Assembly (NCBI RefSeq): GCF_000151315.2
Contig: NW_011887301.1
Location: 1,097,618 to 1,161,617, forward strand
Direction of reading: 5' to 3'
Source: Capsaspora owczarzaki ATCC 30864
Lineage: Eukaryota > Opisthokonta > Filasterea
DNA: 64,000 nucleotides
A program made the position numbers and the translations under genes. The first letter of the stretch is position 1; each line of letters begins with the position of its first letter. The notes beneath the pieces are model-generated. The model did no database searches, was not told the DNA's origin, and was given only the letters and a program-made list of their open reading frames with translations. Of this stretch, positions 31,752 to 34,870 are shown piece by piece.

Positions 31752-32136
31752 GAGCTCTCCTAAAACGAGCAATTGAAATTTGCAGTTCAGTCTTCCATCC
31801 GACTGCTTTAACTTTTCAACCATGGTTAAAGCGACGACAAAGAAAGGCGCTGTGGACAATGATGGTACACAAGCATGTGTTTTGTCTTGTTGTGTTTGGG
31901 GTGCGATGGTCTGGCATACGAAGGCACTGGTTGTTGAATCATTGGGTTTTGCATGGAACACTTTGGGGCCAACTCTGTCGACTCACTCACCCTTGCCATG
32001 CTGTGCCCAGAATCGGTCATTCTCGACTACTTGAACAAGCAAAACAGGCCGTACAGTGCGAGTAAGCCACCACTCCCCACCCCAGCAAGACCAGATTAAA
32101 GCACCATAGGGACTTGCAGCAGACTTGCAACATTGC
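31752..32136 (+). repeat. Direct repeat copy A (HOP2 5' end plus NTPase 3' end)
   Basis: This 385-bp segment matches 33306-33691 at roughly 95% by eye, in the same orientation. It holds the HOP2 upstream region, exons 1 and 2, the start of intron 2 and the last dozen codons of the antisense NTPase gene. Confidence 0.93.
31822..32061 (+). pseudogene. Duplicated HOP2 exons 1-2 (fragment or alternative first exons)
   Basis: Exon 1 copy 31822-31864 and exon 2 copy 32011-32061 keep start codon, splice sites and the same encoded residues as the downstream gene (33376-33615); visible exon differences are silent. Exons 3-7 are absent beside it. It is either a dead fragment or an alternative promoter with first exons that splice over about 1.9 kb to the exon at 33991. 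Confidence 0.8.
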
Positions 32137-33082
32137 GAAATTCGGCATCCTCAACACTGGCAAAAGGCCGGCTGCCGAAAAGCTCGCACAGACGTGGGAT
32201 ACCTCCAGTAATGCGATGCAAGTCTGCCATGATATTGTCGGAAATGCGGACAGGGGGATTACGAGAGAGCCAGGTTTGCTGAAGCACTTGTGTCTCAGCG
32301 TGGCTGAGCGGTCGAACCATCTGTTTGCAGGCGTGAGCCTCTGCATCGCGGAACACTCCTCGCGCAGCGTCCAATGGGTCGAACGATGAGCTCACGGCTG
32401 CCACGAACATTGACACGCCAAAACGAGCACCCATGAAGCCAAGCGATTGCAAAGGATGGTCTTGAGGCAAGCCTGCAACGACGACAGCTGGGTCGAACAT
32501 GGCATTCCACTGGTCGAGAATAAAAAGCGAGCAGAAAGTGGTTGTTGCAGCACAGTAATCACAAACGGCGTTCCACGCAGCAAGCGCAACTCCATGAGCA
32601 CGGATGGGAGCAATCGCAGGCCGAAGAAGAGCCAGCAGATCCGCGTACTGTGGCAGGTTCAACAACGGACGGTTGAGCATCTCAAGTATCCGGCACAAGC
32701 TAGCAGCGGCTGGGTCTGGCCTCAGGCGAGCAATACTGGCCGTTGATGCAACGTAGAGTACAAATAACGGGCGCTGCGGGCTCTCTGGAGGTTGGCGGAG
32801 CTGACGTGCAGTGTAGTCCAACGCCCGAACCAACAGAATGAACAGGACGGTGCTCTTACCAACGCCTCCAGAACCGGTGAGATAGGCGTTGGCCGGTGCG
32901 TTGACGGCAGTGGTAATGTTATCTAGTAAATGCAAAGCGAGGCTTCGCGGCACCAACTCTAGAGGATGTTCGACTGTAATCACGTTGGCGCGATCGGAAA
33001 TCTCGGCTGGCAACTCCACTCCGCTAGTAGCATCCACGTCCTGGCGTGTGATGCGACACACATTGTCGACCCTGTCGCCCAT
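32096..33082 (-). CDS. P-loop NTPase, possibly Crinkler/RHS-type family
   Basis: An intact 328-residue frame. It has Walker A (GSGGVGKST, residues 70-78), a Walker B-like SLFILDQWNAMF (about 185-196) and a late GGIPRLCELFG motif near 298 that resembles the sensor region of STAND/RHS NTPases. The DQxNA form after hydrophobic residues is, as I recall, common in the NTPase of Crinkler and retrotransposon-hot-spot families; this is low-confidence recognition. No N-terminal targeting domain or C-terminal nuclease is visible. It lies antisense between two HOP2 5' repeats, and its last codons are part of the repeat. It could be a mobile or multicopy gene. Function unknown. Confidence 0.6.
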   Translation of the reverse strand: MGDRVDNVCRITRQDVDATSGVELPAEISDRANVITVEHPLELVPRSLALHLLDNITTAVNAPANAYLTGSGGVGKSTVLFILLVRALDYTARQLRQPPESPQRPLFVLYVASTASIARLRPDPAAASLCRILEMLNRPLLNLPQYADLLALLRPAIAPIRAHGVALAAWNAVCDYCAATTTFCSLFILDQWNAMFDPAVVVAGLPQDHPLQSLGFMGARFGVSMFVAAVSSSFDPLDAARGVFRDAEAHACKQMVRPLSHAETQVLQQTWLSRNPPVRISDNIMADLHRITGGIPRLCELFGSRPFASVEDAEFRNVASLLQVPMVL

Positions 33083-33305
33083 CTGTTATGATCAGAGATC
33101 GTTCTACGAGGGTCCGAGTATTGGGTTGATGATAAGTGTAGTGAAAAACTTTCAGGCACACAAAGCGACGAGTGGCAAAATAGCCAAACAGATCAACAGA
33201 TCAATGTGCCTCACGTCAGACGCCTCGAATCCCCACTTTTAAAAACGACTCGGATTCGAGTTGTTTCTCATGAATTTATGCTGTTCTCAATGGAAGCAGG
33301 GGTTA

Positions 33306-33691
33306 GAGCACTCCTAAAACGAGCAATTGAAATTTGCAGTTCAGTCTTCCATCCAACTGCTTTAACTTTTCAACCATGGTTAAAGCGACGACAAAGAAAG
33401 GCGCTGTTGACAATGATGGTACACAAGCATGTGTTGTGTTTTGTTGTGTTTGGGGTGCGATGGTCTGGCATACGAAAGCGCTGGTTGTTGAACCATTGAG
33501 TTTTGTATGGAACACTTTGGGGCCAATTCTGTCGACTCACTCACCCTTGCCATGCTGTGCCCAGAATCGGTCATTCTCGACTACTTGAACAAGCAAAACA
33601 GGCCGTACAGTGCGAGTAAGCCACCACTCCCCACCCCCAGCAAGACCAGATTTAAGCACCATGGGGACTTGCAGCAGACTTGCAACATTGC
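33306..33691 (+). repeat. Direct repeat copy B (HOP2 5' end plus NTPase remnant)
   Basis: Matches copy A at 31752-32136. Its last about 41 bases (33651-33691), now inside HOP2 intron 2, match the 3' end of the NTPase gene, but the stop codon is altered (TAA to AAA on the minus strand) and the match ends abruptly. Confidence 0.93.
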
Positions 33692-34870
33692 TCGTCGTTC
33701 CGCTTCTCAAACACCCAGAGGTCGTGTCCCCCTCCTCAGCTTATCGTGTGGTGGTCACTAGTAGCTTTATCGCTAGTGACCTGCTCGCTGTGGGCCGCGG
33801 TTGAGCGCGCAAAACAGAGACGCTCAACTTTGGAGGATTGGTTTTTGGCGGGAAAAACTTCATGTTTCACTTTTTTTTTTTTTTCCATTTCATGCAACTT
33901 TGCGTTCATTCTGTGCGTTCTCGTCCCAATCTCAACCCCCTGCCTTCGCCTTGTTTTTTGGTTTTTTTGATTTGACTCGTTGAAACGCAGTCGACATTTT
34001 CAACAACTTGCACGGCGCGGTTGGCAAAACGGCAGTCACGAAAGCGCTCGCGTCGCTCACAGCCGGAGAGAAGATTATCGAAAAGGAGTACGGCAAGCAG
34101 CATGTCTATTGCCCAAGACAGGTATGGCGACCCTGCGCTGGTTGTTGTGATTGCAGGATGGATGGTTTGTGTTTGGCTCATCCTTGCCTTTTCCGACTTT
34201 AGGACCAATTCGAAATCCCCGATGAAGCCGAACTCGACCAGCTCGACCAAACGATCGACGAGCTCAGGGATCAGTTGCGCGAAGAGAGTGCTGCGTGCAA
34301 AGCATTGGAAGGAGGTGGGGTTGAACAAGAGCCTTTCGGTAGTTGCACTTTTTCCTTCTCTTCTTCAAGTCTCACTATTTCGTTTCCCTCCCTGCAGACG
34401 TAAAGGTCTCTGGCGCATCGATGAAAACCGTCGATATCATTGCTCGGGTGGCAGCGCTGCGCACCAAGAATGCAGCCAACATGGAGCGCTTGGAAAAGCT
34501 CAAAACTGGCACCAAGCTGGTTTCTTCGGCTGAAATTGCTCGTGTACGTGGGACAAACATGCGGAATGCATGACCACCCGTTTGTTGGTGTGTACTTACC
34601 AGCACTCTCTACAGGTTAAGAAAAACTACACCACCGCTCACACGGCCTGGCGGAGTCGAAAGAAGATGGTAACTTTTTCGCTTCTGTTTTCGCTTCTCTA
34701 ACTAACTCTGCAACGAAACTCACGTACCTGGTCTCGAATGCTAGTGCATGAATGTGATCGACCAGGTCATGGAATCCTACCCCAAACCCAAGGCCCATCT
34801 GATAGACTTGGTCAAGATGGAAACAGACGAGGAGGTCGGCGTGAATTTTGCCAGCATGCCTGCCCCGTAG
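33376..34870 (+). CDS. PSMC3IP: HOP2 / PSMC3IP meiotic recombination cofactor
   Basis: A protein of 228 residues (human 217). Exons are 33376-33418, 33565-33615, 33991-34121, 34203-34338, 34398-34543, 34615-34668 and 34745-34870. The winged-helix DNA-binding domain is VILDYLNKQNRPYSA, then IDIFNNLHGAVGKTAVTKAL and KEYGKQHVYC. A leucine-rich coiled coil follows, for pairing with MND1. The end carries AWRSRKKM and ETDEEVGVNF, as in animal HOP2. Known role: the Hop2-Mnd1 dimer helps Dmc1/Rad51 capture homologous duplex DNA in meiosis. Exon 4 could also end at 34318 (GAG|GTGGGG), same phase, removing about seven residues. The 3' end converges on USP48 with 133 bp between stops. Confidence 0.92.

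What the first reader, a model, noticed from the sequence alone, without database searches (positions are those of the whole stretch)
31752..33691. HOP2 5' end duplicated as direct repeats flanking an antisense P-loop NTPase gene
Copies A (31752-32136) and B (33306-33691) are about 386 bp and nearly identical, including HOP2 promoter, exons 1-2 and splice sites. Between them lies an intact antisense NTPase. The repeat extends into the last about 41 bases of the NTPase gene, and copy B keeps that remnant in HOP2 intron 2 with its stop codon lost. So the NTPase 3' end and the HOP2 intron were joined before the duplication. Recombination between the repeats would excise about 1554 bp containing the NTPase and leave a single HOP2. 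This looks like a nested or captured selfish gene inside a meiotic gene.
Basis: partly seen in the sequence, partly recalled or inferred. Interest (0 to 1): 0.78.

Follow-up and report, generated by a model that had tools for sequence, protein, structure and literature searches.

The report
Repair scar doubling HOP2's front end
A duplicated start of the recombination gene HOP2, with half of another gene between the copies, looks like a DNA break that was patched by copying from a second HOP2 gene and its neighbour elsewhere in the same genome; it is an instructive repair scar rather than a selfish gene.

Summary
The repeat is real: 31752-32136 and 33306-33691 are 96.4% identical, the only off-diagonal match in the window's masked self-comparison. 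The interpretation changes once the genome is searched. A second, complete HOP2 lies on the same contig, head-to-head with a full-length 622-aa P-loop NTPase. The window's "intact" NTPase is that gene's first 316 codons; its last 12 codons and stop are antisense HOP2 intron 2. Divergence from the second locus is a mosaic: copy A introns 10/221 and introns 3-6 16/285, against 16/1169 in the NTPase-LTR-spacer block and 0/480 across most of copy B and the adjoining intron 2. Best reading: a resident HOP2 paralogue broke in intron 2; one end copied about 1.5 kb from the other locus (HOP2 5' end, spacer, solo LTR, half the NTPase) and was end-joined to the other end. Copy A is the severed old 5' end; copy B rebuilt the gene. 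Both HOP2 loci encode the identical 228-aa protein. This fits long-tract gene conversion with end-joining termination. Selfish capture is not supported. No reads or outgroup were available.

The parts
31752..32136 (+). Copy A: severed 5' end of the resident HOP2 (about 70 bp before the ATG, exon 1 31822-31864, intron 1, exon 2 32011-32061, first 75 bp of intron 2)
   Evidence: its introns differ from the second HOP2 locus at 10/221 sites
32135..32138 (.). Junction unique to this place: HOP2 intron 2 joined to NTPase codon 316, 2 bp (GC) shared by both parents
   Evidence: Comparison with both parent sequences
32096..33082 (-). Truncated NTPase ORF, 328 aa: 316 native residues (33082-32137) plus 12 residues and stop read from antisense HOP2 intron 2 (32136-32096)
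   Evidence: the full-length relative is 622 aa
33084..33205 (-). Old solo LTR without its first 8 nt, in NTPase orientation, ending 1 nt before the NTPase ATG
   Evidence: 73% over 135 columns to the LTR-like end of L038, which follows a coding end that I read by eye as integrase-like; related sequence at 37 further places of 40 matches scored. No target duplication seen
33083..33305 (.). LTR plus spacer between NTPase and HOP2, copied from the second locus
   Evidence: 2 differences in 223; continuous with NTPase and HOP2 at the second locus
33306..33691 (+). Copy B: HOP2 5' end copied from the second locus; now the 5' end of the complete gene
   Evidence: Introns 0/146 and 0/76 different from the second locus; but a 5'-UTR patch at 33356-33381 matches A, not the second locus
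33382..33861 (.). 480-bp tract identical to the second HOP2 locus, read as gene conversion, possibly later than the block copy
   Evidence: 0/480 against 16/1169 in the neighbouring block; P about 0.0013 under a uniform rate
33376..34870 (+). HOP2 (PSMC3IP/TBPIP), 228 aa, exons 33376-33418, 33565-33615, 33991-34121, 34203-34338, 34398-34543, 34615-34668, 34745-34870
   Evidence: Splice model from GT-AG sites and homology; Pfam TBPIP E 1.5e-23 and LZ3wCH E 1.2e-10; solved relatives 4y66 and 2mh2. No transcript data

Best explanation
The locus is the scar of a DNA break in intron 2 of a resident HOP2 gene, repaired from a paralogous locus. Earlier, HOP2 existed as two paralogues: one between a RasGEF and a ubiquitin-hydrolase gene (the window), one head-to-head with an LTR-fronted full-length NTPase at C10:702.6-706.3 kb. 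A break (or collapsed fork) fell in intron 2 of the window HOP2. The right-hand end invaded the paralogue and copied leftward through HOP2 intron 2, exons 2 and 1, the spacer, the LTR and 316 codons of the NTPase, about 1.5 kb. It then left the template and was end-joined to the left-hand end, with 2 bp shared at the join. The old 5' end remains as copy A; the copied 5' end (B) restores a complete HOP2. Shown: the second locus, the truncated NTPase, the unique junction, the mosaic divergence, and two open genes for an identical protein. Inferred: that a break started it, which end invaded, and that this was one event. Which paralogue came first is not known. The NTPase fragment is most likely a passenger.
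For: The block 32137-33691 is collinear with L004 4871-3312 (other strand) across NTPase, LTR, spacer and HOP2, so it was copied with HOP2 already attached. Divergence from that locus is two-layered: resident parts 26/506 (A introns 10/221, introns 3-6 16/285) against NTPase+spacer 16/1169 (Fisher P 2e-5); with the latter restricted to synonymous sites plus spacer, 8/459, P 0.005. Region-matched, intron 1 differs from the second locus at 8/146 sites in A and 0/146 in B (P 0.007). The junction shares 2 bp. HOP2 is 228 aa and identical at both loci: 7 synonymous and 0 amino-acid differences. The copied length lies within published long-tract gene conversion, which can end by end joining with microhomology (PMC5104497; abstract and introduction read).
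Against: In the 5'-UTR patch 33355-33381 the second locus differs from B at 9 sites and a 4-base gap; B matches A at 8 of the 9 and at the gap, and is private at 33355. This needs a later clustered change at the second locus or an A-to-B conversion. The 480-bp identical tract needs a further conversion if rates are uniform. Later conversion could also have lowered the divergence of the NTPase block, so the layers are no strict clock. The regions were marked out after seeing the alignment, the counts are small, and A introns alone against synonymous sites plus spacer give only P 0.042. Two shared bases at a join are common by chance. No outgroup, no reads, no second assembly.
Confidence: 0.7

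Rival explanations
1. One segmental duplication carried the whole block (half the NTPase, LTR, spacer, complete HOP2 to its stop codon) from the second locus to the window; copy A arose later by tandem duplication of the block followed by loss of its left part.
For: The whole stretch 32135-34866 aligns in one piece at 96.2% to the second locus. A tandem duplication with ends at 32137 and 33691 would make exactly the A/NTPase junction.
Against: It predicts equal divergence of the NTPase block and the downstream introns; observed 16/1169 against 16/285 (P 9e-5), which would need later homogenisation of the block. It needs an extra deletion to leave only copy A.
Confidence: 0.18
2. The NTPase is a selfish or mobile gene that inserted into HOP2, with the repeat as a by-product such as a long target duplication.
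For: The family is dispersed (14 matches of 18 candidates scored, in 13 genes), partly as gene-sized copies with different flanks. Its layout recalls Crinkler-RHS-type proteins, whose prokaryotic NTPase-REase kin are linked with transposable elements (PMC5289972, passages). An LTR abuts it. One family copy (L024) has a 19-nt, 84% inverted pair 3 kb apart with LTR-like ends, not followed up.
Against: The window copy lacks the last 306 residues. Its HOP2-side edge is the same at the second locus, so it is not an insertion point here. A and B are not equally distant from the second locus (8/146 against 0/146 in intron 1). Apart from the L024 pair, the edges inspected for three other duplicated pairs and one tandem pair showed no clear terminal repeats or target duplications.
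Confidence: 0.05
3. Assembly artefact: reads of two HOP2 loci were joined wrongly.
For: High similarity of the three copies; no reads or second assembly could be checked.
Against: Each copy has private differences, the two loci have no shared DNA in the flanks compared, and a wrong join would not by itself give layered divergence along the block.
Confidence: 0.05

Closest known systems
Long-tract gene conversion / break-induced copying with non-canonical (end-joining) termination
   Same: One-ended copying of kilobases from a homologous donor past the end of homology, then joining to the second end with little or no homology (PMC5104497; abstract and introduction read)
   Different: The published reporter uses the sister chromatid; here the inferred donor is a diverged paralogue about 425 kb away on the same contig, and the event is read from sequence only
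Crinkler-RHS-type (CR) NTPase-REase proteins, including trypanosome retrotransposon hot spot proteins
   Same: P-loop NTPase part (YL.G.GGVGKS, DQWN) followed by a conserved C-terminal block (D499, Q519, S521, Y525, H528 invariant in 13 of 13 rows of A2); dispersed multi-copy family; LTR-like sequence beside some members
   Different: Pfam gave only weak AAA/STAND matches (first member below cut-offs; best E over 13 members 0.0017) and RHSP was not among the 8 families listed at E<=0.1; NCBIfam gave nothing useful for 3 members; the AlphaFold model was unusable (mean pLDDT 48). The nuclease reading of the C-terminus is recalled, not tested
HOP2 (PSMC3IP/TBPIP), meiotic recombination accessory protein
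   Same: TBPIP winged helix and LZ3wCH domains above Pfam cut-offs
   Different: Two loci encode the identical protein in this genome

Membership tests
HOP2/TBPIP | N-terminal winged helix (PF07106) and C-terminal leucine zipper with capping helix (PF18517) | tested here: met
   82.9 bits (cut-off 22.8) and 41.7 bits (cut-off 26.1)
Long-tract gene conversion with end-joining termination | A homologous donor that holds the whole copied tract in one piece | tested here: met
   L004 4873-2097 collinear with window 32135-34866
Long-tract gene conversion with end-joining termination | One homologous side and one non-homologous junction with microhomology or added bases | tested here: met
   Junction 32136/32137 shares GC, though 2 bp is weak; the other side runs into HOP2 homology
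Long-tract gene conversion with end-joining termination | Copied tract younger than the flanking resident sequence | tested here: met
   16/1169 against 26/506, P 2e-5; later conversion could contribute, and the 5'-UTR patch of B runs against it
Long-tract gene conversion with end-joining termination | Origin in a double-strand break, with copying by repair synthesis | not testable with these tools
   Inferred from the product only
Crinkler-RHS-type NTPase-REase | Match to a family model (Pfam RHSP or similar) | tested here: not met
   Only weak AAA/STAND matches in 13 members; nothing useful in NCBIfam for 3 members
Crinkler-RHS-type NTPase-REase | PD-(D/E)XK nuclease fold at the C-terminus | tested here: inconclusive
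   Structure model of relative P0001 mean pLDDT 48; motif reading recalled
Selfish or homing gene inserted in HOP2 | A complete element at the new site, with edges that are new insertion points | tested here: not met
   Truncated at residue 316 of 622; its HOP2-side edge is the same at the second locus

The most novel reading that the evidence does not exclude
The full-length NTPase beside the second HOP2 is a DNA-cutting, Crinkler-RHS-like selfish gene that breaks HOP2-linked sites and spreads through the host's own repair; the window is an aborted homing event in which copying stopped half-way through the element.
Probability: 0.04. Interest if true: 0.75.

Novelty: new member of a known kind. 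Interest (0 to 1): 0.33.

Why it matters
It is a readable natural example of paralogue-templated break repair that doubles a gene's 5' end, brings in a neighbour's upstream region and half-gene, and still leaves the broken gene whole. The same geometry can be mistaken for a nested gene or a transposon insertion when only one locus is read. That the gene is HOP2, itself a recombination factor, and that two loci keep an identical protein while introns 3-6 differ at 16/285 sites, make it a useful test case for concerted evolution in a unicellular eukaryote.

Tried and rejected
Target-site-duplication model: rejected because the NTPase/LTR/HOP2 order and the HOP2-side edge already exist at the second locus and A and B are not equally distant from it.

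Retrocopy: rejected, the HOP2 introns are kept at both loci.

Mobile element with terminal repeats: edges of three duplicated pairs of other NTPase family members (L026/L027, L028/L029, the inverted pair on C4) and of one tandem pair (L023) were read by eye, and four regions (L026, L028, L024, L023) were searched for inverted repeats; most pairs found were of simple sequence. One pair in L024 (3522-3540 and 6549-6567, 19 nt, 84%, LTR-like ends) was not pursued.

Structure and homology of the NTPase: AlphaFold on a relative (P0001 with three further rows) gave mean pLDDT 48, so no fold search was made. PDB by sequence: none for the window ORF at E<=1, one weak ATPase match for the family profile, E 0.017.

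LTR enrichment near NTPase genes: random control regions were drawn but could not be fetched, so no enrichment is claimed. HOP2 copy number by profile and the LTR count could not be obtained (search unanswered, calls below); the count of two HOP2 loci plus copy A rests on DNA similarity.

Corrections on the way: a first region count used exon borders that were slightly off (tests); it was redone, and only one search is used for intron figures and P values. The first exon joining had an exon 2 border wrong by one base and was redone. The first extraction of a second LTR failed and was redone. The output was cut, and its comparison was repeated. In A2 several family proteins (L010, L011, L012 among them) were started at a later Met, which cut off an N-terminal stretch; two shorter members (L016, L017) and the window copy were left out of A2.

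Full report
Observation. The two copies are at the stated coordinates and are 96.4% identical over 386 columns. They are the only off-diagonal match in a low-complexity-masked comparison of the window with itself at E<=1e-8. Both hold HOP2 exons 1 and 2 with splice sites. The gene that starts in copy B is HOP2: 7 exons, 228 aa, with the TBPIP and LZ3wCH domains above Pfam cut-offs and two solved relatives.

What the window alone could not show. A search of the window's own genome (27.46 Mb, 29 contigs) found a third copy of the repeat at C10:703811-704200, about 425 kb from the window on the same contig. It is the 5' end of a second, complete HOP2 gene, head-to-head with an NTPase ORF of 622 aa. 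Window 32135-34866 aligns in one piece to that locus at 96.2%. Homology ends at the HOP2 stop codon on one side and inside the NTPase on the other. The window NTPase follows the 622-aa protein to residue 316 and then reads NVASLLQVPMVL-stop from antisense HOP2 intron 2. So the NTPase is a fragment, and the shared 41 bases are HOP2 intron, not NTPase. The stop codon is present in A and absent in B and in the second locus because of one base difference.

The mosaic. Differences from the second locus: copy A introns 10/221; downstream introns 3-6 16/285 (4/81, 3/59, 1/71, 8/74); NTPase fragment 14/946; LTR plus spacer 2/223; copy B introns 0/146 and 0/76; the run 33382-33861 0/480; the tail of intron 2 (33862-33990) 3/125, with length changes in T runs besides. 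Resident parts against NTPase+spacer: 26/506 against 16/1169, Fisher P 2e-5; with only synonymous NTPase sites plus spacer (8/459), P 0.005. The A introns alone against that last set give P 0.042, the weakest of these tests. Intron 1 alone: A 8/146, B 0/146, P 0.007. The regions were marked out after the alignment had been seen. Copy A and the downstream introns are thus about equally far from the second locus, and the middle block is nearer. This is expected if A and the downstream exons are the two halves of one older HOP2 and the middle was copied later.

Results against this reading. In the 5'-UTR patch 33355-33381 the second locus differs from B at 9 sites plus a 4-base gap; B matches A at 8 of the 9 and at the gap, and is private at 33355. 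A clustered change at the second locus after the copying, or an A-to-B conversion, would explain it; I cannot choose. The 480-bp identical run is too clean for the rate of the neighbouring block (P about 0.0013), so conversion between the two HOP2 genes probably continued, and such conversion may also have made the block look younger.

Selection. The two HOP2 proteins are identical, with 7 synonymous and 0 amino-acid differences, and different stop codons. The NTPase fragment has 8 nonsynonymous and 6 synonymous differences over about 709 and 236 sites, a ratio near 0.44 that cannot be assigned to one copy. Copy A exons 1-2 joined to exons 3-7 would encode the same HOP2 protein through a 1,929-nt intron, so the locus may have two alternative first parts. 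Whether either is used is not known.

Mechanism. A break in intron 2 of the window HOP2, invasion of the paralogue by the right-hand end, leftward copying of about 1.5 kb, and joining to the left-hand end explain the boundaries in one step: A ends where the left end was, the junction is non-homologous with 2 shared bases, and B runs into the resident gene by homology. This is the geometry of long-tract gene conversion ended by end joining; the introduction of PMC5104497 describes tracts of up to about 10 kb copied from the sister chromatid and microhomology at such joins (abstract and introduction read). The break, the direction and the single-event claim are inferences.

The NTPase family. 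The window ORF finds 14 matches in its genome, of 18 candidates scored, in 13 genes (two rows are one gene). Open frames are 464-787 aa outside the window copy. Thirteen proteins (10 from the genome, 3 unnamed database relatives) align with an invariant P-loop core, a DQWN motif and a conserved C-terminal block. The layout recalls Crinkler-RHS-type NTPase-REase proteins (PMC5289972, passages read; the motif reading is recalled). Profile tests did not confirm membership and the structure model was unusable. Other family members also exist as dispersed gene-sized duplicates.

The LTR. The 122 bp before the NTPase start match, at 73%, the LTR-like end of L038, which follows a coding end that I read by eye as integrase-like. 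Related sequence occurs at 37 further places among the 40 matches scored. It is present at both loci, so the simplest order is that it predates the block copy. It may provide the NTPase promoter; untested.

Organism. A search for HOP2, MND1, Capsaspora and meiosis together listed 2 papers, neither about this duplication by title and start of abstract; that does not show that it is unpublished.

Verdict. On checking, confidence in it was set at 0.70 rather than 0.72, because the 5'-UTR patch and the unrooted comparison weigh more than first written.

Noticed in passing
33084-33205: Old solo LTR ends 1 nt before the NTPase start codon at both loci; NTPase transcription may start in the LTR.
   Followed up: partly
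L024 6436-6566, L026 6195-6326, L027 6232-6364, L029 3262-3310: A second, 132-bp LTR-like repeat (TGTTACGAAC...GTCGTAACA) lies near other NTPase family genes (the L029 match is only 49 nt). It brings trypanosome retrotransposon hot spot genes to mind, but no background rate was obtained.
   Followed up: partly
L028 and L029 (C11:730122-731992 and 649850-651726): Two 97% identical inverted copies of an NTPase gene with open frames of 464 aa, both ending before the C-terminal block.
   Followed up: no
L010, L011, L012, L014, L015: Open frames of these NTPase family members begin with a SAP-like stretch. Pfam SAP was listed weakly for 2 of 13 members (best E 0.019), but in L010, L011 and L012 the stretch had been cut off before that scan. 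It would suit a DNA-binding protein.
   Followed up: partly
33355-33381 against L004 3652-3622: A 27-bp HOP2 5'-UTR patch differs at 9 sites and a 4-base gap between the two HOP2 loci inside otherwise near-identical DNA, a clustered change.
   Followed up: partly
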